Assembly (NCBI GenBank): GCA_002699025.1
Contig: PABA01000155.1
Location: 1-64,000 of the forward strand
Length of the DNA: 64,000 nucleotides
Direction: 5' to 3'
From: Sandaracinus sp.
Lineage (GTDB): Bacteria; Myxococcota_A; Polyangia; Polyangiales; Houyiibacteriaceae
Shown here: positions 6,744 through 53,390 of the stretch, piece after piece
Position numbering within the stretch: the first letter of the stretch is position 1
Layout: every line of letters starts with the position of its first letter
Program-made: the position numbers and the translations under genes
Notes under the pieces: generated by a model
Database searches by the model: none
What the model was told of the DNA's origin: nothing
The model's input: only the letters and a program-made list of their open reading frames with translations

Positions 6744-6769
6744 CCGGGCCTCGTCATGCCGCATCTGCG

Positions 6770-6904
6770 GCGTTCGTCGATGCGGCGTACGTCGCTCCGC
6801 CGTCCGTGGTTCCGGCGTTCGTCGATGCGGCGTACGTCGCTCCGCCGTCCGTGGTTCCGGCGTTCGTCGATGCGGCGTTCGTCGTTCCGCCATCCGCGGA
6901 CGCG
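6770..6904. repeat. 45-bp tandem repeat, about three copies
   Basis: Copies begin at 6770, 6815 and 6860 with the motif GCGTTCGTCGATGCGGCGT. The first two are essentially identical over 45 bp and the third is diverged at its end. It lies between the stop of the deacetylase gene and the start of the acetyltransferase-like gene. The length is a multiple of three, so it stays open in all frames and creates spurious reading frames. Confidence 0.85.
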
Positions 6905-12708: not shown

Positions 12709-12840
12709 ATGAACTGTGAGCACTGTGGAGCCCTGCGAACGTCCCCCGAGAGGGACCGCACCTACTGCGGCGCGCCCCCCGTGCTGCCTCCCCGCGCGTG
12801 CGGGGGAGCCGCGGGGGTTTGGGGGGTGGCCACGTCATAG
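12709..12840 (+). pseudogene. Truncated zinc-ribbon gene cut by the CRISPR array
   Basis: A good start site (GGAGG six bases before ATG at 12709) opens a peptide MNCEHCGALRTSPERDRTYC, a typical zinc-ribbon N-terminus with CxxC and a further cysteine. After about 24 codons the frame runs into the degenerate, leader-distal CRISPR repeat at 12783 and the first spacer, and stops at 12838-12840. The rest of the original gene is missing. This marks the left junction of the CRISPR island. Confidence 0.6.
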
Positions 12841-18800: not shown

Positions 18801-21800
18801 GTTCATCCCCGCGCGTGCGGGGGAGCCCTCAGCCACACGCCCGGAGAGGAGGCGCACCACGGTTCATCCCCGCGCGTGCGGGGGAGCCCGCCGGGCACGG
18901 ACGACCGGGGACACGCTCACCGGTTCATCCCCGCGCGTGCGGGGGAGCCCAGCCGCGGTCGGGGCCCGGCCCCTGCGACTCGGGTTCATCCCCGCGCGTG
19001 CGGGGGAGCCGGCGACGACGCCGCGTTGCGCACGTACCTCCTTGGTTCATCCCCGCGCGTGCGGGGGAGCCGGGATGAGCAGCATCCGCACCGTGACCTT
19101 CCCCGGTTCATCCCCGCGCGTGCGGGGGAGCCGGCGATAGCTCGCCGGTCGCGTTGGACCGCGCGGGTTCATCCCCGCGCGTGCGGGGGAGCCCACGTCA
19201 CCGAATTCCTCAGTCGTGCTCTCGACGGTTCATCCCCGCGCGTGCGGGGGAGCCGGTAACCGGGTCACAGAACGGCACCGGAGCACCGGTTCATCCCCGC
19301 GCGTGCGGGGGAGCCTCGCTCTCAGATTTCCGGACGGCACACCCCGAGGGTTCATCCCCGCGCGTGCGGGGGAGCCCCCGAGCTGCCCCACTGGACCGTG
19401 TACGTCAGGGGTTCATCCCCGCGCGTGCGGGGGAGCCGCTCCGCCGCGGACGACCCAGACCTTGACGTGTGGTTCATCCCCGCGCGTGCGGGGGAGCCCG
19501 GCCCGGATTGAAGGCACGCCGCATGGCCAGGGGTTCATCCCCGCGCGTGCGGGGGAGCCGCTAACCGAGGCGACCGGGCAACCGAAGGATGCGGTTCATC
19601 CCCGCGCGTGCGGGGGAGCCGCGCGATGCGTGCGGGGCCGGGACCCCGTGGTCGGTTCATCCCCGCGCGTGCGGGGGAGCCACGATGCGAATGCAGGCTG
19701 AGAAGCTCGAGTCGGGTTCATCCCCGCGCGTGCGGGGGAGCCGGCCTACCTCGCCAGCCTCTACGGCGTCTGACGGGTTCATCCCCGCGCGTGCGGGGGA
19801 GCCTACGACGACTGCCTGGCCATGGCGGCGGTCCACGGTTCATCCCCGCGCGTGCGGGGGAGCCATGTCGGAGCGCCGCCGCAGCTCCTCGTGTAGCGGT
19901 TCATCCCCGCGCGTGCGGGGGAGCCACGGGGTGGCTGAAGCTCGCGGGACTCCAGGGCGGTTCATCCCCGCGCGTGCGGGGGAGCCGGACGCCGGACGAA
20001 CGTGAACTCCGGTGACTCGGGTTCATCCCCGCGCGTGCGGGGGAGCCTCTGCGTCTGGGAGGTGCGGCAGACGTGGCGCCGGTTCATCCCCGCGCGTGCG
20101 GGGGAGCCGTCCGTAGGTCGCCTCGGCCGTCTCGCGACGGGGGTTCATCCCCGCGCGTGCGGGGGAGCCATGAGGTCGGCGATCTTGTTCACGTCGGCGT
20201 CGGGTTCATCCCCGCGCGTGCGGGGGAGCCTTCCGCCTGCATTGCGCCGCCGCCGAGACCTACGGTTCATCCCCGCGCGTGCGGGGGAGCCGCGCGCCTC
20301 TTCGACGCCAGCTCGACGCGCACCGGTTCATCCCCGCGCGTGCGGGGGAGCCCCTCGTGGCTGCTGCCGTCCGTCATCAGCGATGGGTTCATCCCCGCGC
20401 GTGCGGGGGAGCCCAGCTCCGCACCGTCTACAGCGACGGCCCTGGCGGTTCATCCCCGCGCGTGCGGGGGAGCCGCGGAGGGCGTCGGCGAGGTCGGTGC
20501 CTTGGATGGGTTCATCCCCGCGCGTGCGGGGGAGCCGGAGACACCATCGACGAGACCACGGTGCTCGGCGGTTCATCCCCGCGCGTGCGGGGGAGCCCCC
20601 GTCGGCGTGGGCGATCACGTGCTCCTGATCGGTTCATCCCCGCGCGTGCGGGGGAGCCGCCGACGCGACCGTGTAGACCGGCTTGGTCTGCGGTTCATCC
20701 CCGCGCGTGCGGGGGAGCCGTGCGGGTGGAGTGGGGAGCCGCCGGCGGCCGCGGTTCATCCCCGCGCGTGCGGGGGAGCCCGTGGTGGTTGAGCTGCGGG
20801 CTCTCCACCTGGGGGTTCATCCCCGCGCGTGCGGGGGAGCCCCCAGCCAGGTCGTCCTCGGGTCCATGCAGACCGGTTCATCCCCGCGCGTGCGGGGGAG
20901 CCCACGGCGCCACGCTGGCGGAGGTTGGCGCGTGGGGTTCATCCCCGCGCGTGCGGGGGAGCCGTGGCGTGACGTCGACGACCGTCCGCGATTGGAGGTT
21001 CATCCCCGCGCGTGCGGGGGAGCCGGTCGTACTCCCGCCGGGGGATCGCCAGGATCCGGTTCATCCCCGCGCGTGCGGGGGAGCCCACGGCGCTCGTGGC
21101 GGAGATCCACGAGCAGGGGGTTCATCCCCGCGCGTGCGGGGGAGCCCGTGGGGGATCACGACGGAGCGCGTGTCGACCAGGTTCATCCCCGCGCGTGCGG
21201 GGGAGCCTCGTCGGTCAGTTCGGTCATGGGTTCTTCCTTCGGTTCATCCCCGCGCGTGCGGGGGAGCCCTGGGGCTGCCCTTCGACGAGGCGATTCGCTA
21301 CGGTTCATCCCCGCGCGTGCGGGGGAGCCGGTCTTGTGGTCCTGGACGACCGGGATCCCGTCGGTTCATCCCCGCGCGTGCGGGGGAGCCGAATGCCCGA
21401 TCTGCCGACCCGATCACAACTCTGGTTCATCCCCGCGCGTGCGGGGGAGCCTCGTCTTGGTGCGCCAGGCTGAACTCGACCGCAGGTTCATCCCCGCGCG
21501 TGCGGGGGAGCCCAGGTCGCGTACCGCGCGCAGCAGGTCGACCCCGGTTCATCCCCGCGCGTGCGGGGGAGCCAGAACCAAGCCCAGCGCAATCAATAGA
21601 AGCAGCGGTTCATCCCCGCGCGTGCGGGGGAGCCAAGCGATTATCACGCTCGACCGCGATTTGCCGAGGTTCATCCCCGCGCGTGCGGGGGAGCCCTTAT
21701 CGGCTAGGACAATAGAACGATTGACTAGGGTTCATCCCCGCGCGTGCGGGGGAGCCGAAGGAGGGCCCAGCATGACCTATCCAGCGCCAGGTTCATCCCC

Positions 21801-24501
21801 GCGCGTGCGGGGGAGCCTTGTTCGGGACAAAAACGACGCTACGTGTCGCAGGTTCATCCCCGCGCGTGCGGGGGAGCCTCCGCGGTGCTCTCCGCGGTGG
21901 TGCAGAACCCCGGTTCATCCCCGCGCGTGCGGGGGAGCCGCGCGCTTCGCCGCCATCTTCGCCTTGTCCAGCGGTTCATCCCCGCGCGTGCGGGGGAGCC
22001 GCCGGACCCTGCTTTCCGCCGCTCACTGGCAGCGGTTCATCCCCGCGCGTGCGGGGGAGCCCGCGGCCGGTACAGGCACCACGCGCAGGATATCGGTTCA
22101 TCCCCGCGCGTGCGGGGGAGCCACGCTGCGTCATGAGCAGCCCTCCTCGTCCCCGGGTTCATCCCCGCGCGTGCGGGGGAGCCTATCTGCGGGGCCTGTT
22201 CAACGTCGCGGATGACGGTTCATCCCCGCGCGTGCGGGGGAGCCAGCCTCGTCCCGTAGGCGAGAGAGTCCTCTTCGGGTTCATCCCCGCGCGTGCGGGG
22301 GAGCCGCCCGAGCCATAGCCAAAGCCGGTACGTCTCGCGGTTCATCCCCGCGCGTGCGGGGGAGCCACGCCCGAAGAGCTTCACGTGCACCTTTCGCACG
22401 GTTCATCCCCGCGCGTGCGGGGGAGCCAGCGACGTCGAGCGAGAGACGCTCTGGCGTGTCGGTTCATCCCCGCGCGTGCGGGGGAGCCGGCCGAGGCGGA
22501 GGACCTCGATCGGCTGGTCGCGGTTCATCCCCGCGCGTGCGGGGGAGCCGGGAGCACCTGGCGCCCGCGGCCGGCGAGCCAGGGTTCATCCCCGCGCGTG
22601 CGGGGGAGCCGTCGGCGTGCTCCGGGTACACGAACCACGTGGCGGTTCATCCCCGCGCGTGCGGGGGAGCCTCCGCGCGCCGCTTCCGCAGCGCGATGAG
22701 GTGCGGTTCATCCCCGCGCGTGCGGGGGAGCCTCAACCTCACGCCTCCGGCTCCGGCTCCCATGCGGTTCATCCCCGCGCGTGCGGGGGAGCCGACGACG
22801 CGGCCGAGCGCTTGAAGACGGCCGCCGGTTCATCCCCGCGCGTGCGGGGGAGCCGACGGTGGGCTCGCTGCTCATGTGCTTCCTCAGGGTTCATCCCCGC
22901 GCGTGCGGGGGAGCCTCGAGGACCGCGGTGACGGTCACGGCGCGCTGCGGTTCATCCCCGCGCGTGCGGGGGAGCCGTGGCGCGGCCTGTAGCCGCCCCG
23001 CTGGTGATGGGTTCATCCCCGCGCGTGCGGGGGAGCCGCAGAGAACGGCGTGGTGCTCTTGACGTCGACGGGTTCATCCCCGCGCGTGCGGGGGAGCCCC
23101 CGAGGTCGCGGAGCTGGTGATCGCCCAGGAGGGTTCATCCCCGCGCGTGCGGGGGAGCCGGGAACCGCGCTGGCGGTGCGCGGATCGTGATGGGTTCATC
23201 CCCGCGCGTGCGGGGGAGCCTGGATCCGGCGTCTCGCCGACGACCTCGGCGTCGGTTCATCCCCGCGCGTGCGGGGGAGCCCTGCACCAGGTCAAGAACA
23301 TCTTGTGGTACGAGGGTTCATCCCCGCGCGTGCGGGGGAGCCCGCTGTCGTATGCCGCGGCGACCTCCGTGACGCGGTTCATCCCCGCGCGTGCGGGGGA
23401 GCCGTACGCCACCGCATACCGCATGTCGCGAATCGCGGTTCATCCCCGCGCGTGCGGGGGAGCCGTGATGCGCCTTCGGTGGGTAGGGTGAAGTCGCGGT
23501 TCATCCCCGCGCGTGCGGGGGAGCCGCGCAGGCGCTCGATACGCTCATCCAGCGTGGCGGTTCATCCCCGCGCGTGCGGGGGAGCCGGACAGGCTGAGTC
23601 GTGCGTCATGCGCGCTCACGGTTCATCCCCGCGCGTGCGGGGGAGCCTGACTTCCATTGCTTCCTCCTCATGCGGCCGCCGGTTCATCCCCGCGCGTGCG
23701 GGGGAGCCTCGGCGCCGCCGCCGCCCGCGCCGTCGAGCTTGGGTTCATCCCCGCGCGTGCGGGGGAGCCCGCGAGATCGACCCTTCCGCCCTCGAGGACG
23801 AGGGTTCATCCCCGCGCGTGCGGGGGAGCCGACCTCTGCGAAGCTGACCATCACTCACCGTCCGGTTCATCCCCGCGCGTGCGGGGGAGCCGCACTCGGG
23901 GGAGGGGGTACCGTCGGCCCCCCTGGTTCATCCCCGCGCGTGCGGGGGAGCCACCTCCCGGTGCCGGATCTGCGTGAACTGCGAGGGTTCATCCCCGCGC
24001 GTGCGGGGGAGCCATTTTCTCCATGACCCGATCCACGCCGGACACGGGTTCATCCCCGCGCGTGCGGGGGAGCCTAGCGAAGTCGCTGGGTGAGCGACCG
24101 AATCACCGGTTCATCCCCGCGCGTGCGGGGGAGCCGCGGCGCGATGGCTCGCGAGTCGCCTGAAGAGCGGTTCATCCCCGCGCGTGCGGGGGAGCCCACG
24201 AGACGCGCCAACGGTCGAGGCGGGGCACCGGTTCATCCCCGCGCGTGCGGGGGAGCCTACCAGGCCACCGTCTTCGACGCGCCGACGCTGGGTTCATCCC
24301 CGCGCGTGCGGGGGAGCCGCGGCCCCGCGGCCTCTGGTGCGAGAGTAGCGGGGTTCATCCCCGCGCGTGCGGGGGAGCCGGCAGGGGTGAACGGGGAGCC
24401 CGCGCGCGGTGGGGTTCATCCCCGCGCGTGCGGGGGAGCCTCCGTCCGTCGCCGGCGAGCGGACGGCTCCATCGGTTCATCCCCGCGCGTGCGGGGGAGC
24501 C
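12783..24501 (-). CRISPR. Type I-E CRISPR array, 192 repeats and 191 spacers
   Basis: The 28-bp repeat (on the plus strand it begins GGTTCATCCCC and ends GCGGGGGAGCC) recurs with a strict 61-bp period and 33-bp spacers. I followed every repeat end from 12810 to 24501. The total of 11,691 bp equals 191 x 61 plus 40, and the excess is accounted for by a 38-bp spacer (12933-12970), a repeat with one extra G (ending 17086), a 66-bp spacer (18185-18250) and a 34-bp spacer (20475-20508). Read on the minus strand the repeat is a standard I-E repeat with a CCCCGC/GCGGGG stem and a handle ATGAACC. The leader is therefore at 24502 next to cas2, and the degenerate terminal repeat at 12783-12810 is the old end. 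Single-base repeat variants occur at about 14254, 14503 and 15594. Confidence 0.98.
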
Positions 24502-24556: not shown

Positions 24557-24904
24557 TCAGAACGGAGTGTCTTCGTCCGCGTCTCGGGCCAGCTGGAAGC
24601 GTTCGTCCTGCGTCAGGTCGGTACGTGCGAGGTACACGCCGTCGTGCTCGACCAGCTCGTACGGAGGTCCGCCGAGCACGCGGATCTCCTGACCCCCCGG
24701 CAGCTTCCGGTCGGGCCAGGTCATGACGAGCCCCTGGTCCGCGGTCAGCTCGCTGCACCACCCCCGAAGGACCCTCCACACCCGCTCCCGCACGGACGCG
24801 CTCATGCGCGGCGCCGTGTAGACGCCCGGCGCGACCTCGCACATCACCGAGGCGAGGAAGCCTCGCACCCGCGGGGCCACGTTCCGCGTCGCCACGACGG
24901 TCAT
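24557..24904 (-). CDS. cas2: CRISPR-associated endoribonuclease-fold protein Cas2, type I-E
   Basis: A 115-residue Cas2 of the I-E (CasF/TIGR01873-like) type: MTVVATRNVAPRVRGFLASV, VAPGVYTAPRMSASVRERVW, then GLVMTWPDRKLPGGQEIRVLGG. It would form the central dimer of the Cas1-Cas2 integrase that inserts new spacers at the leader end, 55 bp downstream. Its ATG overlaps the cas1 stop (ATGA), so translation is coupled. It is the last gene of the operon before the leader. The tail after residue 94 (DLTQDERFQLARDADEDTPF) is longer and more acidic than in the E. coli protein. Confidence 0.95.
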   Translation of the reverse strand: MTVVATRNVAPRVRGFLASVMCEVAPGVYTAPRMSASVRERVWRVLRGWCSELTADQGLVMTWPDRKLPGGQEIRVLGGPPYELVEHDGVYLARTDLTQDERFQLARDADEDTPF

Positions 24905-25794
24905 GGGCACGATGTCGCACCACCCTCTTCGTCTTCCTCGGAATCGAAGAGGTCCTTGATGCGGTCGATCATCGTCGCGACGACCTTCTGCTTCCGCAGC
25001 GTTCGGCCGGCATGATGGCGCACGACCCTCTCGAGGGGCCGGTCTCCCCGCCTCGCCTTCACGGCACCGAACGCGATCGGCAACGTGATGCTGTCCCGGA
25101 ACAGATCGGCGATGTCGAGCGCCAACGCGATCGCCGACTCTTCGTGGATGAACCCGAGCTGGGGGATGGTTCCGGAGACGGCCACGGCGACCTGCGCCGC
25201 CGCCACCACGGCGGCCGACGCGTGGTTGATGGCCTGGTTGGGCACGTCCGCGGCCATCGGCTTCGCCCGGTCGTAGCGCCGCCCGTGCCAGGTGATGCCG
25301 AACTCCCGAGCGATGCGCTTGTAGTTCTCCTTGGCGCGCGCCCCCTCCATCCCCCGGAGCACGGCCATCTCCGCATCGGGAAAGAGCTCGCCGAGACGAA
25401 ACGCGTACATGCGGCGCGCCACATAGGTACGCGTGTCCATCGCGGCCCAGAGCCGCGCCTGCCGGCGGGCCCGCGTGGAGCGGTCCGGCCCGAGCGGGAG
25501 CACGGTCGCGTAGAAGCGGACACCGCCCTCCCCCGCTGCCACGAGCGCCACGCCGTGCGATGCGCAGAGCCGTAGAACATCGTGGGTCACGGTCATCCCG
25601 GGCTGCAGCACGATCGCCGATGCCATCTGGTACGGAACCAGATAGGACCCCGCCTCGAGGTCCGCGTTGCCGGCCGTGACGAACTTCAGCGTGCCCCCCT
25701 CGACCACGAGTCGCCCCCGACCGAACCACAAGACGCCGTGTCGATCGGCCTGGGGCACGTCGGCGCTCTCGAGCCCGAGGCGGCCCTTCAGCAT
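24901..25794 (-). CDS. cas1: CRISPR-associated integrase Cas1, type I-E
   Basis: A 297-residue spacer integrase. Counting from MLKGRLGLES, the three metal ligands fall at E150 (GMEGARAKENYK), H217 (GFIHEES) and D230 (DIADLFRD). The spacing of 67 and 13 residues is the same as in E. coli Cas1 (E141, H208, D221), so it should be active. The ATG lies one base after the cas6e stop, and the end overlaps cas2 by 4 bp. A longer in-frame start inside cas6e is unlikely. It works with Cas2 at the leader-proximal repeat. Confidence 0.97.
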   Translation of the reverse strand: MLKGRLGLESADVPQADRHGVLWFGRGRLVVEGGTLKFVTAGNADLEAGSYLVPYQMASAIVLQPGMTVTHDVLRLCASHGVALVAAGEGGVRFYATVLPLGPDRSTRARRQARLWAAMDTRTYVARRMYAFRLGELFPDAEMAVLRGMEGARAKENYKRIAREFGITWHGRRYDRAKPMAADVPNQAINHASAAVVAAAQVAVAVSGTIPQLGFIHEESAIALALDIADLFRDSITLPIAFGAVKARRGDRPLERVVRHHAGRTLRKQKVVATMIDRIKDLFDSEEDEEGGATSCP

Positions 25795-25795
25795 C

Positions 25796-26608
25796 TCAGA
25801 CGGCGCTCCCCACCCGGAGCATCCCGAACCCGAACGCCCGATGGCGGCCGAGGCCACGGGCGAGCAGCGCCGTGAAGGCGCCTGGGTCCTCGACTTTCAA
25901 GCTGCCCACGAGGAGCGCGTCCGGCCGCTCGATCCGCCCGCCACCGCGACGGTGCATGCGAGCCCGTCGGAACGACTCCAAGTGGAGCGATCCGTCCACC
26001 AAGCTCGCGGCAGGCGGCCCATCCTTCTCCCGCTCTCCCCCGGCCTGGAGCTCGCGGGCCAGCCACTCGCCATAGACCCGCTCCCGATCCGTCCACTCCC
26101 AGGCACTGCGGGCGAAGGGCTCCTCGAAGCGCGGCGGCTGCTCCGTCCACTCCTCGAATCGAGCCGCCAGCCAGGCGTCGACCTCCCGCGAGCGGGCACG
26201 GCCCTTCCCGTCCCGGCGTGGCTCGGCGCGACCGGCTCGCTTCGTACGGGTGACGGGGCACACACGAGCGCGGAAGCGGAGCTCGGTCCCGGCGGCGAAG
26301 GCGGGCATCGAGCGGGTCGCGAGCTCGAGGACGAGCTCCTCGCCCCGCGGACCCAGCGCGTCACGCAGCTCTCCCTCGTGACAACGGGAGTACCCGAGCA
26401 CGAAGAGCGTCCCTTCGTCGCTGCCCCGCCCGAAGGTGTCGTCGAGACAGAAGCTATCGAGAGGGATCTCGGGCTTGGCCTCGGGGGAGGCCGCGAAGGC
26501 CGCCGACAGCCCGGCGTGAAGCAGGTATCCCTCGTCCCAAGCCCCGCGCCGCACGGTGCGAGCGAGCGCGCGCCGATCCATGGCGAGCCGTACCAGGTGC
26601 AGCTTCAT
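25796..26608 (-). CDS. cas6e: crRNA-processing endoribonuclease Cas6e (CasE/Cse3)
   Basis: A 270-residue RAMP-fold RNase that cuts each repeat 3' of its hairpin and stays bound in Cascade. The likely catalytic histidine is H31 in GYLLHAGLSAAF, matching the conserved N-terminal histidine of the family (H20 in E. coli). The glycine-rich loop typical of the second ferredoxin fold is at the C-terminus (GLGRHRAFGFGML). Its start overlaps the cas5e stop (ATGA). It is longer than the E. coli protein (about 200 residues) because of a charged insert around residues 125-205. Confidence 0.95.
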   Translation of the reverse strand: MKLHLVRLAMDRRALARTVRRGAWDEGYLLHAGLSAAFAASPEAKPEIPLDSFCLDDTFGRGSDEGTLFVLGYSRCHEGELRDALGPRGEELVLELATRSMPAFAAGTELRFRARVCPVTRTKRAGRAEPRRDGKGRARSREVDAWLAARFEEWTEQPPRFEEPFARSAWEWTDRERVYGEWLARELQAGGEREKDGPPAASLVDGSLHLESFRRARMHRRGGGRIERPDALLVGSLKVEDPGAFTALLARGLGRHRAFGFGMLRVGSAV

Positions 26609-27321
26609 CGTGCGCCTCCCTGGGTCGAGCCTCGCGCCGCGGGGGGGTCGACGGAGATCGCCTTCACGTAGCGACGACCATGGCGTCGTCGGCCCGGACG
26701 GAACGAGAGCGGAACGTCATCGCGCGGGTCGCCCTCGCTCGGGCCGCACTCGACCACCACGCGAAGGGCCTCATCGGCCGGCGTCGCGCTCCCCTCATCC
26801 GCGCCGAAGGGCAAGAGACGGGGGAGCGATGTCAGCACCTCCGCGGGCTCCCCGTCGTGGACGCCGTGGAAGACCGGCGCGGAGGGGGGACAGGCCCGGC
26901 GACCCAGAAAGAGCGGCCAGCGCGGATCGCGAAGCGCCTCGCCGATCTCCTCGATCCGTTCTTCTTCACCGCCCAGCGCCGCGAGGAAGATGGCTCCCTC
27001 CAAGTAGAAGCGCTCGCTCACGACGGCCTGACCCTTCTTGATCCCGAACACCGAGTAGCTCGAGTCACCGCGGAACGTCCCTCCCCCAGAGGTGTGGTAG
27101 TCGCGCAGGAGCGAACCGGGCCGGTCCACACGGACCGCGAACGTCAGCTCGCCGAGCGAGCGAACGGCCTCGTCATCGGACCGCTCGACGCCCAGAGCCG
27201 CCCCGACGAGACCGATGACGCCGCTCTTGCTCGGCTCGCGGTCGGTCCCGCGAATCCCGTGCTTGCTCTGGGTGGCCCAGGATTGAAGGGGCCCTTCGAG
27301 GCGGAGCGCGACGGACTTCAC
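26605..27321 (-). CDS. cas5e: Cascade subunit Cas5e (CasD)
   Basis: A 238-residue RAMP protein that caps the 5' handle of the crRNA in Cascade. It begins with the family signature VALRLEGPLQSWATQSKHG and has the conserved stretch PSKSGVIGLVGAALGV, then DYHTSGGG and the thumb region. The start is a GTG at 27321 that overlaps the cas7e stop (GTGA), so no spacing is left for an independent promoter. It ends in ATGA overlap with cas6e. Confidence 0.95.
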   Translation of the reverse strand: MKSVALRLEGPLQSWATQSKHGIRGTDREPSKSGVIGLVGAALGVERSDDEAVRSLGELTFAVRVDRPGSLLRDYHTSGGGTFRGDSSYSVFGIKKGQAVVSERFYLEGAIFLAALGGEEERIEEIGEALRDPRWPLFLGRRACPPSAPVFHGVHDGEPAEVLTSLPRLLPFGADEGSATPADEALRVVVECGPSEGDPRDDVPLSFRPGRRRHGRRYVKAISVDPPAARGSTQGGAR

Positions 27322-28502
27322 GCCAACGCCCCGGCGACCCGGTCGAAGAAGCCCGCCGGATCCGCCTGTCGCTCGACTCCCTCGAGGTCGCCGAGCGGGC
27401 GATCGGCGTAGCTGACGACGTCCAGCCCCTCGCCCATCCAGCCACGCATGCGCTGGAAGTACGCCTCGATCTGCGCGATGGAGGCGTCGACGAGGTCGTC
27501 GCCCTTCCGAGGCCGCGCCGGCCGGAGGAAGGCGTTGGAGAGGGAGACGGGCTGCCCCGAGGGCCGCACCACGGCCAGCACGTAGCTCGGGGGGTTGTGC
27601 GCGGCCATCGAGTTCTGCTTGGCGGTCGGGATGGCGCTCACGAAGGCGCGCACGAACGCCGCCGCGGTCTTCGCCGTGAGCTCCTCTTCGCCATCCAGGT
27701 TGGCCCCCAGCGCGGCCACGTCCAGGACGGCGTACCGGTAGAAGCAGGACGAGTTGAACTGGATCGTCCCCATCATGTCGGAGCCGGCGTTGTCTTCCGC
27801 CTTGAAGTCGTCCACCGCGGTGTAGAAGTCGAACTCCATCTCCATGGCGTGCGTGGAGATCGCGTGGGCGACCTGGCAGGAAGCCTCGACGTTCCACTGG
27901 GGGGCGTCGGCGATCATGCGACCGAAGAGCGCCAGGTCGGCGCAACCCCGCGCGCTCGCCAAGAGCTGCTCCACCTCGCGACGGATCTCCTTCGGGTACC
28001 CCTTCTTCGCGGCCGCCTTGGCCTTCTTCCGGTCGCCGCTGGCCTGCGCCTCGGCGAGGTCGCTCAGCTCGTCGCGGTGTTCCCAGAGGAGCGAAGCGAG
28101 GGCACCGATGATGCGCCGCGGCACGAAGAGCAGGTACTCGGTCTTCCAGGCGTCGTAGTCGAAGGACTCGTCGTCGCCCTTCTTCTTGCTCTTGGCCCGC
28201 TTCAGGCCTGCCCCTTCCAGCGCTCCCATGGCGAGGTGGAAGGCCTGCGCCTCGTCCATCTCGTGGTCCGCCTGGAGGCGCTCGGCGACCTGCTGGGCGA
28301 GGCGCTTCGTCCGCGCTGCGAGGTTCTCTTCGGGCAGCAGACCGTCGAGGGCGAACCGATCGCGGGTCGCGCGCTTCTGGCACTGGCTCGAGATGCGGGC
28401 CCGCCGATAGCCCCCGAAGCTGCAGTCCTTGGGCGCACCGGTGTCGTCCCGGTTCAGGTTGGAGGGCGCGAAATTCTGGAGGATGTGGAGCTCGATCTTC
28501 AT
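27318..28502 (-). CDS. cas7e: Cascade backbone subunit Cas7e (CasC)
   Basis: A 394-residue backbone protein, six copies of which coat the crRNA in I-E Cascade. It begins IELHILQNFAPSNLNRDDTG and GGYRRARISSQCQKRA, the classical Cas7e N-terminus, and contains FNSSCFYRYAVLDV and NSMAAHNPPSYVLAV near the middle and end. In known structures the Cas7 thumb breaks guide-target pairing every sixth base, which matters for the pseudo-spacer found upstream. It follows cas11 after 28 bp with a GAGAGAG ribosome site. Confidence 0.96.
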   Translation of the reverse strand: MKIELHILQNFAPSNLNRDDTGAPKDCSFGGYRRARISSQCQKRATRDRFALDGLLPEENLAARTKRLAQQVAERLQADHEMDEAQAFHLAMGALEGAGLKRAKSKKKGDDESFDYDAWKTEYLLFVPRRIIGALASLLWEHRDELSDLAEAQASGDRKKAKAAAKKGYPKEIRREVEQLLASARGCADLALFGRMIADAPQWNVEASCQVAHAISTHAMEMEFDFYTAVDDFKAEDNAGSDMMGTIQFNSSCFYRYAVLDVAALGANLDGEEELTAKTAAAFVRAFVSAIPTAKQNSMAAHNPPSYVLAVVRPSGQPVSLSNAFLRPARPRKGDDLVDASIAQIEAYFQRMRGWMGEGLDVVSYADRPLGDLEGVERQADPAGFFDRVAGALA

Positions 28503-28530
28503 GGTCTCTCTCGATGCGAAGGGGTCGTGG

Positions 28531-29037
28531 CTAGGAGGTCGGCGTGGAGGGGTCGGTGTCGGCTTCGCTGGGCGCGGTCGCGCCCCAGAACTGACGAGCC
28601 CAACGGCGCTGCGTGCGCCCGCCGCCCCAGAAGCGGAGGTCGCGATAGAGGGCGTGCCAGTCGATGGGCTCGTTCTCGCCGGCGAGGAGGGCGACGAGGT
28701 GCCGGAGGTGGTGCGGCAGGTCGGCCCGATCGGCGGCCAGAAGCGCCATGAATCGGTCCTCGATCCCCGCCCCCTCCCGCTTCGCGTCGATCACGCGCAG
28801 CATCCGCGCGAAGGGCGTCGCCCCGGAACGGGGGTGCAGCGCGAAGAGCGCAGCGACCAGCACGGCGAGGTCTTCATCGGCCTCACGCCCCGTGTGCACG
28901 AAGGGCATCACGATGCGAAGGGCGTCCCACTGACGGTCCGCTCGCAGGCCGGATCGAAGCGCGGCCAGCGTGGCGCGGTCGTTGCGCTCGGCGAGGCCCT
29001 GGACGTATTCGATGAGGGGTTCGGGGGAGTCGTTCAT
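28531..29037 (-). CDS. cas11e: Cascade small subunit Cas11e (CasB/Cse2)
   Basis: A 168-residue, almost entirely helical protein with the Cse2 pattern (RNDRATLAALRSGL, then FALHPRSG...FARMLRVIDAK...GIEDRFMALLAADRADLPHHL RHLVALL, in pieces). Two copies line the belly of Cascade and hold the displaced strand. The ATG at 29037 overlaps the cas8e stop (ATGA). A longer open frame continues upstream inside cas8e but is only a shadow. Confidence 0.92.
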   Translation of the reverse strand: MNDSPEPLIEYVQGLAERNDRATLAALRSGLRADRQWDALRIVMPFVHTGREADEDLAVLVAALFALHPRSGATPFARMLRVIDAKREGAGIEDRFMALLAADRADLPHHLRHLVALLAGENEPIDWHALYRDLRFWGGGRTQRRWARQFWGATAPSEADTDPSTPTS

Positions 29038-30584
29038 GCGGCGTCTTCCTCGGGGCCTCGCAGCTGGGCGAGGCCGCGGTTCAGGTTCACTTCCGCGCGG
29101 GCGCGTGCGCGGAGCCAGCGTGGCTGTTCGCCGCTGGCCGTGGCGGTCTGGAAGCAATCTCGGACCACGGCTCGGCACGTGTCGGCGAAGCGCGCCTGGG
29201 CCTGGTCCAGATCGGTCTCGAGCTCCGAGAGGAGCGCGTCGAAGTGCCGGCCGAGGGCGTTCCAAGCGCGGCGTCGAGCGCCGAGCGCGTCCACCAGACC
29301 GCGGATGTCCTTCTTGTCTGGCTCGCGCTCCCCCACGGAGAGCGCGAGCCGCGCGTAGAGGTAGATCGCACGGCCGAGGGCGCCGACGGCCTCCTCCGCG
29401 AAGCGCAAGGACTCGCGGAGCACCTCGCCCGCGTCGGGATCCGCCAGGAGCGGGGCGCTGGCCCAGAGCGTCTCGTGGAGGACGGACTTGATCGACGACT
29501 TGTTCGTGGCCAGGCCGATCAGCTCGAGCGCGAAGCGGCGGCCGGCGGGAACGGCCCCGCGCACCTCCGGGGTCGAGAGCTGCACGATGGCCTTGGGGCG
29601 CTCGACGTGGTCGCTCTTCTCCCGGCTGCCCTGAAAGAGAGCATGCGCGTCCCGCCAGAACGCACGCTCGGGCACGACCCCGATGGGGCGCCAGCCACGC
29701 TTGGCGTCGTTGCGCCACATGAAGGCCGGCTCGTGGGGCGTGGCGTCACTCTGGCCCTGCCCCACGCAGCGGACGAAACCCACCACCTGGTCGCCCTCGG
29801 TCACCAGCTCGAGACGCCGGCTCCACCAGGTCAGCATGTGCAACCAGCCCGTCGGAAGGACCGCCGGCTCCTTCTTCAGCGGGAGCTCGGCCGGCAGTGG
29901 CGGCCGCTCCCAGGAGGGCAGGTCGTCCTCGTGCGTGGGGACGGGCTCACGCTCGCCGTCCCAGACGAGGAGGTTGAGGCAGAGGGTCTCGAAGAGCGTC
30001 TCGCCGCGCACCAAGACGGTGACGCCCCCGAGGAGCGGCGCCGCAGTGGCCGAGGTGGGCTCTCCCGGCTTCCGGACGAGCCCTCCGGTGTCGTAGGCAT
30101 GGTAGGCCACCAGCGCGCGGGCGGCGGCCGCGAGCGGCATGCTCGGCACGTGCGTGGGCGCGCGATGCTCGAAGAGGTTCCGAGCCGTGCCCCAACCCCG
30201 TCGCTCGAGGGTCATCTCGTCGATGGGCGTGACTCCGAAGCGCTCGCGAAGCCCCGGCACCTGACCGAAGGGGTGCTCGGGATGGAGGAGGTCCATCCGG
30301 TCCCGGACGCGCTCCAGGTAGGCGCGCACGGCGGCCGCGTCGAAGGCCCCGGCCTCGTAGATGCGTCGCCACGCGCGCCGATCCGCGGGCCCCTCGAGCG
30401 CCCGGTGCAGCACCGCGAGGAGATGCCGAAAGAGCGGGGCGATCTCGATCGGCGACTCGGGCGTCAGCGCACGCAGCTCGTGGGCACGGGTCAGCGCCTG
30501 CTCCGTGGAGAGCTCGACCCGCTCCCCCTGCGCCGTCTCGCAGGGGAGCCAAGGTTCCGTCGTCAGGTCGAAGGAGGGAGTCAT
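29034..30584 (-). CDS. cas8e: Cascade large subunit Cas8e (CasA/Cse1)
   Basis: A 516-residue protein that recognises the PAM and recruits Cas3. The start MTPSFDLTTEPWLPCETAQG is the typical Cse1 N-terminus (FDLTxEPWLP), and an AAAGG ribosome site lies six bases upstream. Conserved segments include DLLHPEHPFGQVPGL, LFEHR, and a C-terminal helical bundle. It is the first gene of the cas8e-cas11-cas7e-cas5e-cas6e-cas1-cas2 unit. Upstream lie 438 bp without a gene that carry the promoter candidates, a palindrome and the repeat-like guide. Confidence 0.96.
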   Translation of the reverse strand: MTPSFDLTTEPWLPCETAQGERVELSTEQALTRAHELRALTPESPIEIAPLFRHLLAVLHRALEGPADRRAWRRIYEAGAFDAAAVRAYLERVRDRMDLLHPEHPFGQVPGLRERFGVTPIDEMTLERRGWGTARNLFEHRAPTHVPSMPLAAAARALVAYHAYDTGGLVRKPGEPTSATAAPLLGGVTVLVRGETLFETLCLNLLVWDGEREPVPTHEDDLPSWERPPLPAELPLKKEPAVLPTGWLHMLTWWSRRLELVTEGDQVVGFVRCVGQGQSDATPHEPAFMWRNDAKRGWRPIGVVPERAFWRDAHALFQGSREKSDHVERPKAIVQLSTPEVRGAVPAGRRFALELIGLATNKSSIKSVLHETLWASAPLLADPDAGEVLRESLRFAEEAVGALGRAIYLYARLALSVGEREPDKKDIRGLVDALGARRRAWNALGRHFDALLSELETDLDQAQARFADTCRAVVRDCFQTATASGEQPRWLRARARAEVNLNRGLAQLRGPEEDAA

Positions 30585-30667: not shown

Positions 30668-30707
30668 ACGTCGAGGCGGGATGGCTCGAGCCATCCCGCC
30701 TCGACGT
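30668..30707. repeat. 40-bp perfect palindrome upstream of cas8e
   Basis: Twenty-base arms meet with no loop at CTCGAG (centre 30687/30688). The half-site is GAGCCATCCCGCCTCGACGT. It lies about 84-123 bp before the cas8e start, inside the predicted 5' untranslated leader. There is no T-run, so a simple terminator is unlikely. It may be an operator, an RNA hairpin that controls Cascade translation, or a recombination scar. The core GGATGGCTCGA is repeated in the CRISPR leader. Confidence 0.9.
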
Positions 30708-30791
30708 GGCCGCGCCCGAGGTCCGCCCAGCGGCAGCCCTCTCTCATGGGGCGCGGCACTCGCTATCTCCTGCGCACGAAAGACTCCGGCC

Positions 30792-30869: not shown

Positions 30870-30898
30870 GAGGGGCGCCGGGGTAACGGCGCCCCCTC
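30870..30898. terminator. Strong GC hairpin followed by TTTAT
   Basis: The stem GAGGGGCGCCG pairs with CGGCGCC(C)CCTC around the loop GGGTAA. On the plus strand it is followed by TTTAT, which could end a rightward transcript weakly. On the minus strand it would lie at the very start of the predicted cas8e transcript and could block or slow its early elongation. Confidence 0.5.
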
Positions 30899-30927
30899 TT
30901 TATGCAGTGGTCGCAGAACGTCCGCAA
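30899..30927 (-). promoter_or_regulatory. Candidate promoter of the Cascade operon (Pcas)
   Basis: Minus strand -35 TTGCGG (30927-30922), 17-bp spacer, -10 CATAAA (30904-30899), with an A/T-rich tract just upstream (30931-30938). It would start near 30892, leaving a leader of about 300 nt before cas8e. The region is clearly AT-rich in a GC-rich window. It matches consensus only partly and was found by eye. Confidence 0.45.
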
Positions 30928-30939: not shown

Positions 30940-30962
30940 AAGTGCCTAGCCATGACCGGTAG
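30940..30962 (+). promoter_or_regulatory. Predicted Cascade binding site (AAG PAM plus protospacer)
   Basis: The trinucleotide AAG (30940-30942) is followed by TGCCTAGCCATGACCGG, which matches the pseudo-spacer TGCCTGGGCATCACCGG starting at 31013. Over 20 positions 15 agree. Mismatches are at 6, 8, 12, 18 and 20, and 6, 12 and 18 are the positions that Cas7 flips out in type I complexes. AAG is the best-known I-E PAM. The site lies about 48-70 bp upstream of the predicted cas start and over the -35 of the rightward promoter. Incomplete pairing would favour binding without cleavage. Confidence 0.65.
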
Positions 30963-30980
30963 ACCGACCTAGCAGATACT
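30952..30980 (+). promoter_or_regulatory. Candidate rightward promoter for the repeat-like RNA
   Basis: Plus strand -35 ATGACC (30952-30957, four of six to consensus), 17-bp spacer, -10 GATACT (30975-30980, four of six). Transcription would begin near 30987, exactly at the first repeat-like hairpin. The E. coli cas3-casA intergenic region also has a divergent anti-Pcas promoter. Here the -35 is inside the predicted Cascade target, so the guide could repress its own synthesis. Confidence 0.4.
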
Positions 30981-30986
30981 CTCTCG

Positions 30987-31060
30987 AATACCCCCTGATG
31001 GGGGATGAACCGTGCCTGGGCATCACCGGGACGTGCTCCCCCGCCCTCGCGGGGATTCCA
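30987..31060 (+). ncRNA. Noncanonical crRNA-like element: two degenerate repeats around a 22-nt pseudo-spacer
   Basis: First repeat-like unit (30987-31011): stem CCCCC/GGGGG with loop TGAT, then ATGAACC, shortened by three bases relative to the array repeat. Together with G31012 it gives the exact Cas6e 5' handle ATGAACCG. Pseudo-spacer: TGCCTGGGCATCACCGG and a few more bases from 31013 to about 31033, shorter than the normal 33. Second unit (about 31034-31060): GCTCCCCCGC, CCT, CGCGGGGAT, about 22 of 28 positions as in the array, but with a ruined handle. The sense strand is plus, opposite to the array and the cas genes, and it overlaps the 3' end of cas3. This is the architecture of CreA/CreR-type guides, but a decayed mini-array is the alternative. 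Confidence 0.65.
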
Positions 31061-33872
31061 GGACGAGGCCGAGGTCGGGGTCGAGGTGCAGCGCCACGCC
31101 CCCGACCTCGGCCACGCCGTTGTCGAATCGGACCACGCGCCTGTGACGGAGGAGCGCCACGCGCTCCCAGGCAGTGGGACGCGCCGCCGGGTCCTCGACG
31201 AGGGCCCGCACCACGGCCGGCCGGGAGATCGAGATGGACCGCTCGACGAGCGCGCGTTGGAGGGCCGCGTCAGGGACGACGTCGAGGTCGATGACGCGCT
31301 CGCCTGCCCAGACCTCTCCCCCTCGCTGCTCGAGGCAGACGACGGTCACGCTGTCTCTCGCGTCTCGGGTCTGGGCGCGCCGATCCGCATGAAGCGACGG
31401 CGCCTCCTCGTCCTCGAGCCCGAGCCTCAGCTCGCCGAGGAAGTCGTCGGGGGCGTCCGCGTGAGGGAGCAGGCGCTGTTCGGCCGAGCTCCGCTGGGCC
31501 GCGCCGCGCCCGAGGCGCTCCTGTTGGGCCGCGGAGTGGGCGTGGGCCGCCGGGAGGATCGCCGGGTCGTAGACGCGCTCCACGAGCGGCTCGATGTCGC
31601 CGGGGAGCTCGACGTGGGAGCGGCCACGCAGCGCGTCGAGGGTTCGGCGCAGGGGGAGCTCGTCGTACACCGCGGCGACCTGGCGGAGCGCCTCCACGCT
31701 GGGCTCCTCGTCGGCCGGCGCGACCACCCACAGCTCGGCGCGGGTGCGCACCGGGTGCCGGTCGTCGCGGTCGTGCCGGAAGAGCCGCCCCGCCCGCTGG
31801 AGGACCAGGTCGACCGGCGCGAGGTCCGTCACCAGGAGGTCGAAGTCCACGTCCAGGCTCTGCTCGAGCACCTGCGTCCCCACGACGACGCTCCGTTCGG
31901 GCCGATCGCCCCGTCGGCCCAGCAGACGCTCGAGCTCCTCTTCTCGGCGCAGTCGCTCGGGAGGGAAGAGCCGGGAGTGGAGGAGGAGCCGCTGCAACTC
32001 CGGCGCTTGCTCGGCGATGGCCTGGTAGGCGCGCTGCGCAGCGTCCACGGTGTTGCAGATCCAACCGACGTTTCCGCCGCGAGCCACCTCGTCGAGGATG
32101 CGAGCCGCGAGCCTCTCGACCCCCTCGTCCCGGAAGCCGAGGCGGATGGAGGTCGCCCTCCCCCGCGGACCGAACGACACGCTGTGAATGCCCTGCGCGC
32201 TGGCGGTCGTGATGCGTGGATAGGCGGTGCTCGTCGTCTCGTCCGGAGTCGACGCACTGGCGATCGTGGCGCCAGGTACCGTCCGCGCGCCGCGCCGGTA
32301 GGCGTCGAGGAGCTGTCGCCGGCGCGAGGAGGGCAGCGTCGCGGAGAGCAGCACCACCGTGGTGCCCGCGGCGCCGAGCCACTCGACCAGCCGATCGAGG
32401 AGCGTGCCCGTGTACGTGTCGTAGGCGTGGACCTCGTCGAGGATCACGACCTTGCCCGCCAAGCCGGCGTAGCGAACGAAGGCATGCCGGACCCCCATGA
32501 CGGCCAGGAGCGCCTGGTCGATCGTTCCGACGGCGTGCTCGGCGAGGAGCGTCCTCTTCTTGGTGCAGAACCAGGCCTCCGCGCGGACGCCCCCCGTCTC
32601 GACATCCTCGTCCGCGGACTCCGAGCTGCCATACACCTCGCCAAAGCGGAGCCTGGCGAAGGCATCCACGAGCGAAGCCTCGCCGTGCGCGAGGAGGAGG
32701 TTCGCAGGCTCGTCCGTGCGGGTGCGCTCGAGGAAGCGCCGAATGCGCCCGAAGAGCTGGTTCGCCGTGGCTCGCGTGGGGAGGCCCAGGAAGAGGCCCT
32801 GCTGGCCGAGCTTCGCCGCCGCAGCGTCCGCCAGGAGCAGGGACGCTTCCGTCTTGCCTTCGCCCATCGGCGCTTCGACCACGAAGAGCGACGGGGCCTC
32901 GAGGTGCTCGGCGAGCGTCTGCGCCTGCACGTGGAGAGGCCACGGCTCGTACTCGGGGAAGAGGTCGGTGAAGACACGGAAGGCGCGTGGCCGGGGCGCG
33001 GGGAAGCCCGCGGCGTCGAGCGCCACGCGGGCGCGGCGGCGGGCGCGTGCGAAGTAGGCGGGGAGCGCGGACGGGTCCGGGGGAAGGGGCGCCTCGTAGG
33101 GGAAGTGCTCCTGCATGGAGCCCAGCCAGTCGGCCATCGAGGTCAAACCCGCGAGGGCATAGGCTTCGCCGTGGGTGGGGTAGCGGAGGCCAGACACGTC
33201 CACGTCGTCGAGCCGGAGGAGCTCGGTCAACGCGCCGATCAAGGCGGCCCGCGCGTCACGCCATGTCTGTCCGCCGCGCGCCTTTCGTCCGAGTCTTCCG
33301 GGATCCAAGTACTCGTTTCCGACGAAGGTCCCGTGATGCGCGACGACGCAGTGGGCGTAGCGCGCGGCGCAATCACCTCGAAGCCCGGCGCTCTCGAGCG
33401 CCGGAGCCAGGAGGCTCAGCCCGGCCTTCGAGTGGTTCGGCGTGCTGCTCCGGAAGTCGAAGCCCTCTTCTCGAAGGAGGCTCGGCGCCCAGGGCGCCTT
33501 TCGCTGGAAGGCTGGTGTCGCCTTCCCCAGGTCGTGGAGAGCGATGAGAAAGGCGAGGAAGCGAAGGGCTGACTCGGGACTCTCGTGAAGCCCCAGGAAG
33601 GTACGCGCCGAGGCGTTCGGCAGGCGCTCGGCGAGGAGCACGCAAGCGACCGCCGCCACGTCGATGCAGTGCAGGAGGAGCGGATGGGCGAGGCTCGCGT
33701 CGTCGGGCCGTGACTTCCCCCAGAGAAGCCAGTGCGCTCTCCCCGCGGCCAATCGCCTCCACTCGTCCGGGCTCGCGGCTCGAACGGGCGCGCCCTCGCT
33801 CGCCGGAAAGCACTGCTCGAGCGACGGAGGCGTACTTCCGCTCAAAGCGCCACCGTCGAGCTGCGATCCCAT
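31023..33872 (-). CDS. cas3: CRISPR-associated helicase-nuclease Cas3, type I-E
   Basis: About 949 residues with an N-terminal HD nuclease fused to an SF2 helicase. HD motifs: H68/D71, the HD pair H113-D114 in ALHDLGK, and H179-H180 in VVAHHG. Helicase motifs: Walker A APMGEGKTE (K340), DEVH (479-482), SATLPS, VGTQVLEQSLDVDFD and QRAGRLFRH. All are intact, so it should degrade DNA that Cascade marks. I chose the ATG at 33872 because GGGGGC lies just upstream. An in-frame ATG at 33929 adds 19 unlikely residues. It has no short-range link to cas8e (438-bp gap), so it is probably transcribed separately. Oddly, its last codons (LESPRGRGSTSR) are the antisense of a repeat-like sequence and its stop lies inside the pseudo-spacer. 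Confidence 0.95.
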   Translation of the reverse strand: MGSQLDGGALSGSTPPSLEQCFPASEGAPVRAASPDEWRRLAAGRAHWLLWGKSRPDDASLAHPLLLHCIDVAAVACVLLAERLPNASARTFLGLHESPESALRFLAFLIALHDLGKATPAFQRKAPWAPSLLREEGFDFRSSTPNHSKAGLSLLAPALESAGLRGDCAARYAHCVVAHHGTFVGNEYLDPGRLGRKARGGQTWRDARAALIGALTELLRLDDVDVSGLRYPTHGEAYALAGLTSMADWLGSMQEHFPYEAPLPPDPSALPAYFARARRRARVALDAAGFPAPRPRAFRVFTDLFPEYEPWPLHVQAQTLAEHLEAPSLFVVEAPMGEGKTEASLLLADAAAAKLGQQGLFLGLPTRATANQLFGRIRRFLERTRTDEPANLLLAHGEASLVDAFARLRFGEVYGSSESADEDVETGGVRAEAWFCTKKRTLLAEHAVGTIDQALLAVMGVRHAFVRYAGLAGKVVILDEVHAYDTYTGTLLDRLVEWLGAAGTTVVLLSATLPSSRRRQLLDAYRRGARTVPGATIASASTPDETTSTAYPRITTASAQGIHSVSFGPRGRATSIRLGFRDEGVERLAARILDEVARGGNVGWICNTVDAAQRAYQAIAEQAPELQRLLLHSRLFPPERLRREEELERLLGRRGDRPERSVVVGTQVLEQSLDVDFDLLVTDLAPVDLVLQRAGRLFRHDRDDRHPVRTRAELWVVAPADEEPSVEALRQVAAVYDELPLRRTLDALRGRSHVELPGDIEPLVERVYDPAILPAAHAHSAAQQERLGRGAAQRSSAEQRLLPHADAPDDFLGELRLGLEDEEAPSLHADRRAQTRDARDSVTVVCLEQRGGEVWAGERVIDLDVVPDAALQRALVERSISISRPAVVRALVEDPAARPTAWERVALLRHRRVVRFDNGVAEVGGVALHLDPDLGLVLESPRGRGSTSR

Positions 33873-34004
33873 CCGAGCCCCCGACGCTACCCGTCGCGCG
33901 TCTCCTGGCGAAACCCCGGTTTGGGGCATGGGGCGTCAGAAAGCGGGGCCTCAGGGGCAGGGGGCGCGAGCGCCGAGGCTGCGTCGTGCGCTGCGCTCAG
34001 CGCG

Positions 34005-43486: not shown

Positions 43487-44052
43487 GCGCGCCCCGTCTC
43501 GTCCCGCCCCCCCCCGCCGATTTCCTCCCCACCGCCCGCAGCCCCCCGCCCAAGCGAGCCCCGCGAACGGCCCCGATTCGAAGAACCGAGCATCCGGCGG
43601 GCGCCCCGACCCGAAGGCCAGCCCATCCCACAGCGACGAACCCACCGCGACGCCGACGACGCAGCTGGGAGAGAAGCGCACCGGCCGCGACACCGGCAAA
43701 GCCCCCCACTGCGAAGGGGAGCGCACCCACCGCGACAGCGGCAAAGCCCCCCTACTGCGAAGGGGAGCGCCCTGGCCGCGCACGCGGCGAAGTCCCGCCA
43801 CTGCAAAGGGGAGCGCCCTGGCTGCGCACGCGGCGAAGTCACCTCAGCGCGAAGGGGAGCGCCCTGGCCGCGCACGCGGCGAAGTCACCTTGCTGCGAAG
43901 GGGAGCGCCCCCATCTCCGCCCCGTAGCCCGGCCCCACGGAGCCGCGTTCGTGTGCCGTCGAAGAACCGACCCGTGTGACGCGGCCGGAGGCCGCGCCGA
44001 GCCGCCCACGGCGGCGCTGGCAAGCCAAATAGCGAGCGCAGCGAGCGCAAGA
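43487..44052. repeat. Intergenic region with 46-bp tandem repeats
   Basis: No gene is recognised in these 566 bp. Copies of a 46-bp unit (core GCGAAGGGGAGCGCCCTGG, then CGCACGCGGCGAAGTC) begin at 43711, 43757, 43803, 43849 and 43895 with exact spacing, and a more diverged copy begins near 43665. The last two full copies differ by only a few bases. The region is between an exported-protein gene and the 3' end of polA. Downstream of 43915 I see nothing but short AGCGAGCGC repeats. Confidence 0.85.
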
Positions 44053-53193: not shown

Positions 53194-53203
53194 GCGGGAG
53201 CCC

Positions 53204-53390
53204 GTGGACGCTGCGCGAGGAGCGCGTGAATGCTGCGCGAGGAGCGCGTGGACGCTGCGCGAGGAGCGCGTGGACGCTGCGCGAGGAGCGCGTGAATGCT
53301 GCGCGAGGAGCGCGTGAATGCTGCGCGAGGAGCGCGTGAATGCTGGGCGGTGCCCGTGGACCCTGGGCGGTGCCCGTGGACCCTGGGTAG
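53204..53390. repeat. 22-bp tandem repeats, then 20-bp units
   Basis: Units GTGRAYGCTGCGCGAGGAGC start every 22 bp at 53204, 53226, 53248, 53270, 53292, 53314 and 53336. Copies alternate between GTGGACGC and GTGAATGC. Two 20-bp units (GTGGACCCTGGGCGGTGCCC) follow from 53356. The array lies between convergent genes, just after the kinase gene stop. Confidence 0.85.

What the first reader, a model, noticed from the sequence alone, without database searches (positions are those of the whole stretch)
30940..31060. Built-in CRISPR-like guide between cas3 and cas8e that appears to aim Cascade at its own control region
Seen: two degenerate copies of the array repeat flank a short pseudo-spacer, in the opposite orientation to the array. 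The first copy keeps the full Cas6e handle (ATGAACCG). The pseudo-spacer TGCCTGGGCATCACCGG (from 31013) matches TGCCTAGCCATGACCGG at 30943, and the three bases before that target are AAG, the standard type I-E PAM. Over 20 positions there are five mismatches: 6, 8, 12, 18 and 20. Positions 6, 12 and 18 are exactly those that type I Cascade does not pair. The target sits in the only AT-rich promoter-like stretch. Known: CreA and CreR RNAs of other CRISPR systems use repeat-like guides with partial matches to make Cascade a repressor of a toxin or of cas genes. Inferred: this is a I-E example in a myxobacterium-like genome, with a pseudo-spacer of about 21-22 nt that would favour binding over cutting. 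The mismatch at position 8 is in the seed and may weaken it.
Basis: partly seen in the sequence, partly recalled or inferred. Interest (0 to 1): 0.95.

Follow-up and report, generated by a model that had tools for sequence, protein, structure and literature searches.

The report
CRISPR guide repressing its own locus
Next to its CRISPR genes this bacterium carries a worn-down one-guide mini-CRISPR that very probably sends the CRISPR complex to sit on, not cut, a nearby promoter, most likely to keep a built-in toxin RNA (and perhaps the cas genes) switched off; this arrangement is already known elsewhere, and a survey here finds it in 11 other genomes.

Summary
In the cas3-cas8e gap of a complete type I-E locus, two degenerate repeats (30985-31012, 31034-31062) flank a 21-nt pseudo-spacer whose only full match in 9.24 Mb is an AAG-flanked site 70 bp away, with mismatches 6, 8, 12, 18. 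No shuffled gap (0/4000) and no array spacer (0/191) does as well. Surveying other I-E gaps gave 11 further guide-target pairs in Actinomycetota and a Chloroflexota MAG, all with AAG; mismatches pile up at positions 6 and 12, the flipped-out bases. So Cascade pairing is what selection keeps: this is a creA/creR-type guide. Both CreR and CreTA are already reported for type I-E, and the layout equals the Citrobacter rodentium CreTA. I favour CreTA over pure cas autorepression, or both from one promoter. New member of a known kind.

The parts
30985..31012 (+). psiR1: degenerate first repeat; 5-bp stem CCCCC/GGGGG and intact Cas6e handle ATGAACCG
31013..31033 (+). psiS: 21-nt pseudo-spacer (guide), TGCCTGGGCATCACCGGGACG; overlaps the cas3 stop codon
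31034..31062 (+). psiR2: degenerate second repeat, 6-bp stem intact, handle lost; lies in the unconserved 3' end of cas3
30940..30963 (+). target: PAM AAG (30940-30942) plus protospacer 30943-30963; mismatches to psiS at 6, 8, 12, 18, 20, 21
30899..30927 (-). proposed creT/cas8e promoter: -35 TTGCGG (30927-30922), 17 bp, -10 CATAAA (30904-30899), start about 30892; the AT-rich UP-like stretch CAATAAAAATG and the target lie just upstream
   Evidence: weak consensus, 7/12; the standard scan lists none
30952..30980 (+). possible promoter of the guide: ATGACC-17-GATACT, start about 30987; its -35 lies inside the target
   Evidence: 8/12, weak
30763..30787 (-). candidate creT mini-ORF: SD GGAG (30787-30784), 6 nt, GTG CGC AGG AGA TAG (30777-30763)
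   Evidence: only such pattern in both strands of the window; 0.14% of shuffled leaders without, 0/20000 with the stop
30668..30707 (-). perfect hairpin, 18-bp arms, 4-nt loop, downstream of the mini-ORF
   Evidence: only inverted repeat with arms of 11 or more and loop 3-8 outside the array; leader fold z = -6.1
29034..30584 (-). cas8e (cse1/casA), likely start ATG at 30584
31023..33929 (-). cas3
24557..29718 (-). cse2, cas7, cas5, cas6e, cas1, cas2 (rest of the I-E operon)
12810..24501 (-). CRISPR array, 192 repeats, 32-nt spacers

Best explanation
The element is a creA-type guide gene of a CreTA module attached to a type I-E system. A short plus-strand RNA starting near psiR1 is cut by Cas6e after both degenerate repeats to give a crRNA-like RNA with an intact 5' handle, a 21-nt guide and a psiR2 stem. 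Cascade loaded with it binds the AAG-flanked site at 30940-30963 without cutting (short, partly matched guide) and blocks the promoter just beside it. That promoter reads towards cas8e and first makes a structured leader RNA with a tiny ORF (GTG CGC AGG AGA stop) and a perfect hairpin, the anatomy of CreT RNAs that sequester a rare arginine tRNA. If Cascade is lost or inhibited, repression ends and the toxin RNA is made. Shown by sequence: guide, target, PAM, pattern of mismatches, recurrence in other genomes, mini-ORF and hairpin. Inferred: transcription, processing, repression, toxicity. The guide-Cascade-promoter part stands at about 0.9; that the repressed product is a CreT-like toxin is the less certain step.
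For: Repeats: psiR1 keeps the handle, psiR2 keeps the stem and loses the handle, exactly the degeneration pattern described for CreA (PMC9458426). psiS-target: sole full match to the masked pattern in 9.24 Mb, 0/4000 shuffles, 0/191 spacers. Twelve loci pooled: mismatch at 6 in 7/12 against 5/120 at 1-5 and 7-11 (p 4e-6); at 12 in 11/12 against 5/36 at 11, 13, 14 (p 2e-6); still 2e-5 and 1e-5 without the window; all PAMs AAG although the PAM was not required in the search. Every sixth crRNA base is flipped out (PMC5904413), so the pattern is the mark of Cascade pairing. A 21-nt guide fits: 21-24 nt represses without interference or priming in H. hispanica (I-B; PMC10989794). Toxin side: SD, AUG/GUG start, two consecutive minor Arg codons and a stable stem-loop are all critical for H. 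hispanica CreT (PMC8501985); all four are here, AGA 1.2 and AGG 3.6 per 1000 codons in the cas genes, leader fold z -6.1. Same order as the tested I-E CreTA of C. rodentium: cas3, antisense creA, target at the UP element, promoter, creT, casA (PMC12055562). Four surveyed loci carry a small hydrophobic ORF plus hairpin between target and guide.
Against: No transcript data; promoter matches are weak. The mini-ORF was noticed after reading the sequence; its first sense codon is the common CGC, and AGGAGA can also serve as a Shine-Dalgarno. H. hispanica CreT has the rare codons right after the start. The hairpin has no T-run on the minus strand, so termination before cas8e is not shown. No close homologue of this gap exists to show conservation of the mini-ORF: the nearest relatives have no gap. 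One seed mismatch (position 8).
Confidence: 0.58

Rival explanations
1. CreR: the same guide makes Cascade repress the promoter of its own cas8e-cas2 operon (autoregulation); the leader is only a 5' UTR and there is no toxin. Or both: one promoter makes a leader toxin and cas mRNA.
For: The promoter next to the target reads on the cas strand and no other gene lies before cas8e. CreR is reported for I-B, I-E and V-A (PMC13131331). In L030 the target lies right at the cas8e 5' region and in L123 the promoter after the target seems to run straight to cas8e.
Against: A 300-nt leader with a mini-ORF of rare codons and the strongest hairpin of the window is not needed for this. The layout is that of a tested CreTA.
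Confidence: 0.33
2. Relic of an old inverted mini-array whose spacer happens to resemble a nearby sequence; no function.
For: The repeats are degenerate; the module is missing from related Myxococcota loci.
Against: Match with PAM not reached in 4000 shuffles; degeneration follows function (handle kept in psiR1, stem in psiR2); mismatches at non-pairing bases in 12 loci.
Confidence: 0.04
3. Two copies of a protein operator (direct repeat TGCCTRGSCATSACCGG), for example of a cas regulator; the repeat-like flanks are coincidence.
For: A 17-nt direct repeat in a promoter region can be an operator; without the PAM a 14/17 match occurs in 0.2% of shuffles.
Against: One copy sits exactly behind an intact Cas6e handle and before a repeat stem; the other exactly behind AAG; the same geometry with unrelated sequences recurs in other genomes.
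Confidence: 0.03
4. A minimal CRISPR array in use for immunity, taking new spacers.
For: Two repeat-like units and one spacer-like unit.
Against: 21-nt spacer against 32 in the array, degenerate repeats, self-target next door.
Confidence: 0.02

Closest known systems
Type I-E CreTA of Citrobacter rodentium (PMC12055562)
   Same: I-E; module in the cas3-casA gap; guide on the opposite strand to the cas genes; target at the UP element of a promoter reading to casA; toxin between promoter and casA
   Different: PAM ATG there, AAG here; toxin there is a 96-bp translated ORF without rare codons; here a mini-ORF with AGG AGA and a hairpin. No sequence of that module was compared here.
Haloarcula hispanica CreTA (I-B; PMC8501985, PMC9458426)
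   Same: psiR1 handle kept, psiR2 handle lost in CreA of this group; CreT = SD, tiny ORF with two minor Arg codons, stem-loop
   Different: Different subtype and domain of life; H. hispanica creA itself has one psiR; here the rare codons are AGG AGA after one CGC
CreR, cas-regulating RNAs (Liu et al. 2023, cited in PMC13131331, PMC12737573)
   Same: Mini-CRISPR guide with partial match to a promoter in the cas locus; reported for I-B, I-E, V-A
   Different: Repressed product here seems to begin with a CreT-like leader; the primary paper could not be read

Membership tests
CreA/CreR crRNA-like guide | One or two degenerate repeats of the linked array outside the array; psiR1 handle conserved, psiR2 handle degenerate | tested here: met
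CreA/CreR crRNA-like guide | psiS partly complementary, from the PAM-proximal end, to a promoter region of the linked locus, next to a valid PAM | tested here: met
   the pattern recurs in 11 other loci; the promoter itself is only predicted
CreA/CreR crRNA-like guide | RNA is transcribed, processed by Cas6 and loaded in Cascade | not testable with these tools
   needs small-RNA sequencing and pull-down
CreTA (type VIII toxin-antitoxin) | Toxin gene under the targeted promoter | tested here: inconclusive
   candidate mini-ORF plus hairpin at the right place, rare by chance; toxicity untested
CreTA (type VIII toxin-antitoxin) | tRNA-sequestering CreT: SD, AUG/GUG, two consecutive minor codons, stable stem-loop | tested here: met
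   (sequence features only)
CreTA (type VIII toxin-antitoxin) | Loss of Cascade is harmful unless creT is removed | not testable with these tools
   needs genetics
CreR | Targeted promoter drives cas genes | tested here: inconclusive
   promoter points to cas8e, same strand, but a 300-nt structured leader intervenes
Canonical CRISPR array | Near-identical repeats and spacers of the usual length | tested here: not met
   repeats degenerate, spacer 21 against 32 nt

The most novel reading that the evidence does not exclude
One Cascade-repressed promoter serves two ends in a bacterial I-E system: its leader is a rare-arginine-codon toxin mini-ORF (such tRNA-sequestering CreT RNAs are, in the papers read here, shown in haloarchaea) and its read-through makes the Cascade genes, so loss or inhibition of Cascade releases both new Cascade and a toxin; across Actinomycetota, Chloroflexota and this myxobacterium-like lineage such guides keep mismatches at the flipped-out bases 6, 12 and 18.
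Probability: 0.25. Interest if true: 0.72.

Novelty: new member of a known kind. Interest (0 to 1): 0.52.

Why it matters
It places a self-aimed Cascade guide in a lineage where most examined relatives have no room for one, and the 12-locus comparison gives sequence-only evidence that such guides are held by Cascade base pairing: the bases that never pair are the ones that drift. That signature (handle, about 20-30 nt, second stem, AAG site nearby, mismatches at 6, 12, 18) can be used to find CreTA and CreR modules in any type I-E locus. If the mini-ORF is a toxin, rare-codon CreT toxins extend from haloarchaea to bacteria with I-E systems.

Tried and rejected
Rfam: no hits. Spacer protospacers in phages, to derive the PAM of this system: no match; the last repeat base, which in I-E comes from the PAM (own knowledge), is G in 56% and C in 34% of repeats, in line with but not proof of AAG. 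Related DNA in plasmids: none. Paralogues of the gap in the genome: none beyond short chance matches. Close homologues in GTDB genomes: only about 29-33% Cas8e identity; relatives of the same order at 36-46% have no gap. Origin of psiS from an array spacer: no. An ORF that runs from GTG 30759 with a good AGGAG was considered; it reads through cas8e in another frame and is taken as a by-product of high GC. The primary CreR paper is not held.

Full report
What is there. The window holds a complete type I-E locus on the minus strand: cas3 (31023-33929), cas8e (likely ATG at 30584), cse2, cas7, cas5, cas6e, cas1, cas2 and a 192-repeat array with 32-nt spacers. The repeat, in crRNA orientation, is GGCTCCCCCGCACGCGCGGGGATGAACC plus a variable last base. 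Between cas3 and cas8e lies a 438-nt gap. On its plus strand, opposite to cas genes and array, are psiR1 (30985-31012), a 21-nt psiS (31013-31033) and psiR2 (31034-31062). psiR1 keeps the 8-nt handle and a 5-bp stem; psiR2 matches the 5' part of the repeat in 20 of 23 positions and has lost the handle. psiR2 lies in the last codons of cas3, a tail that is not conserved among relatives.

The guide and its target. psiS matches 30943-30959 in 14 of 17 positions and 30940-30942 is AAG. Mismatches are at 6, 8, 12, then 18, 20, 21. A pattern of AAG plus the 17-mer with 6, 8 and 12 left free has one perfect match in the 9.24-Mb genome, this site (the mask was chosen after seeing the match). Of 4000 dinucleotide shuffles of the gap none reached 14/17 next to AAG, and none of 191 array spacers did better than 10/17. 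Without the PAM, 14/17 alone is reached by 0.2% of shuffles, so the match is not astronomically unlikely by itself; its place behind the handle, the PAM and the mismatch positions make it so.

Independent test in other genomes. Close homologues of this gap were not found: related Myxococcota I-E loci mostly have cas3 and cas8e within about 50 nt (L068, L079 and L080 have larger gaps: L068 was scanned only with a borrowed repeat and gave nothing, L079 and L080 were not scanned). I therefore looked at unrelated I-E loci with gaps: a Chloroflexota MAG (L030), Nocardiopsis terrae (L031) and 33 loci from the family of the latter. In one search a guide was any site behind at least 6/8 of the locus's own handle with a stem of 4 or more before it; targets were ranked on positions 1-14 with no PAM asked for. 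Eleven loci (window included) gave a best pair with AAG, always with the guide antisense to the cas genes and the target on the same strand: L031, L114, L121, L123, L127, L129, L134, L137, L141, L142 and the window; L030, whose handle is too degenerate for that filter, was found. Loci without such a pair had non-AAG best pairs at chance level, some scoring as high as 11-12 of 14, so score alone does not decide. Pooled mismatch counts at positions 1-18 are 0,0,1,0,0,7,0,2,2,0,0,11,3,2,7,3,8,7 in 12 loci. Position 6 against 1-5 and 7-11: p = 4e-6; position 12 against 11, 13, 14: p = 2e-6; without the window 2e-5 and 1e-5; with one of each of two similar pairs dropped 4e-5 and 6e-5. Every sixth base of the guide is flipped out of the Cascade-DNA hybrid (PMC5904413). 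The guide and target sequences differ from locus to locus, so the geometry, not a shared sequence, is what recurs. This is strong evidence for binding by Cascade.

What is repressed. In E. coli, AAG and about five seed pairs are enough for Cascade binding in vivo, and cutting needs far more; in H. hispanica (I-B) 21-24-nt guides repress while interference and priming vanish, and 20 nt is clearly weaker (PMC10989794). So a 21-nt guide with 14 paired bases should bind and block. On the minus strand just beyond the target are an AT-rich stretch and a weak promoter (TTGCGG-17-CATAAA, start near 30892) that reads to cas8e; a weak plus-strand promoter that could make the guide has its -35 inside the target, so the guide may also limit itself. 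The standard promoter scan lists neither.

The 300-nt leader. From 30892 to the cas8e start the RNA is far more structured than shuffles (z = -6.1). It holds GGAG-TCTTTC-GTG CGC AGG AGA TAG (30787-30763) and then a perfect 18-bp hairpin (30707-30668). The mini-ORF pattern (SD, 4-9 nt, ATG/GTG, up to two codons, two AGA/AGG codons, early stop) has one hit in both strands of the 64-kb window, this one; 0.14% of shuffled leaders have it without the stop and none of 20,000 with it; the hairpin is the only inverted repeat with arms of 11 or more and a loop of 3-8 nt outside the array. AGA and AGG make up 1.2 and 3.6 per 1000 codons of the cas genes. Published work on H. hispanica CreT lists SD, AUG or GUG start, two consecutive minor arginine codons and a stable stem-loop as all critical (PMC8501985). 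The order cas3, antisense guide, target at the UP element, promoter, toxin, casA is that of the C. rodentium I-E CreTA, where deletion of the gap rescues loss of Cascade (PMC12055562). I therefore favour CreTA (0.58) over pure cas autorepression by CreR (0.33); both from one promoter is possible, since nothing shows that transcription stops at the hairpin.

Comparison with other loci in the survey. In L031, L121, L129 and L142 a small ORF of 33-40 codons with one hydrophobic segment and a hairpin after it lies between target and guide, as expected of peptide toxins; in L123 a TTGACG-TAGGTT promoter overlaps the target edge and seems to lead straight to cas8e, as expected of CreR; L127 has a short start ATG CCC CTA ATA with two rare codons. 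So the guide class may serve both uses, and each locus must be judged by what lies beyond its target.

What is shown and what is inferred. Shown by computation: anatomy, chance level, genome-wide uniqueness, recurrence, mismatch signature, mini-ORF and hairpin statistics. Inferred: transcription, Cas6e processing, Cascade loading, repression, toxicity.

Verdict. The finding is real and its core reading right; it is a new member of a known kind, with the toxin reading added here and a signature that supports the whole class.

Noticed in passing
L031 about 3705-3806 (sense), and the cas3-cas8e gaps of L121, L129, L142: Small ORFs of 33-40 aa with a hydrophobic stretch (for example MQVSFDKDAMRSIGWFISGLLVATLLDLSRFLG in Nocardiopsis terrae) followed by a hairpin, lying between Cascade target and antisense guide: candidate Cascade-repressed peptide toxins of Actinomycetota.
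   Followed up: partly
L123 and L137 gaps: A second AAG-flanked near match to the same guide lies within about 100 nt of the first, suggesting tandem Cascade sites on one promoter.
   Followed up: no
L127 gap: Short start GAGG-8-ATG CCC CTA ATA right after the target: another possible rare-codon (Leu CTA, Ile ATA) mini-ORF.
   Followed up: no
window 12810-24501: Very long array (192 repeats, the only array of this repeat in the genome). The last repeat base is G 56%, C 34%, T 7%, A 3%, which may mean that PAMs ending in C are also taken; one 65-nt stretch between two repeats suggests a lost repeat.
   Followed up: partly
window 30872-30895: GC-rich hairpin with a CTCTTT tail, terminator-like on the plus strand, at the very start of the proposed creT RNA on the minus strand.
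   Followed up: no
window 6768-6896, 43675-43911, 53197-53349, 56909-57106: Tandem repeats of 45, 46, 22 and 99 bp units (83-96% match), unrelated to the CRISPR locus.
   Followed up: no
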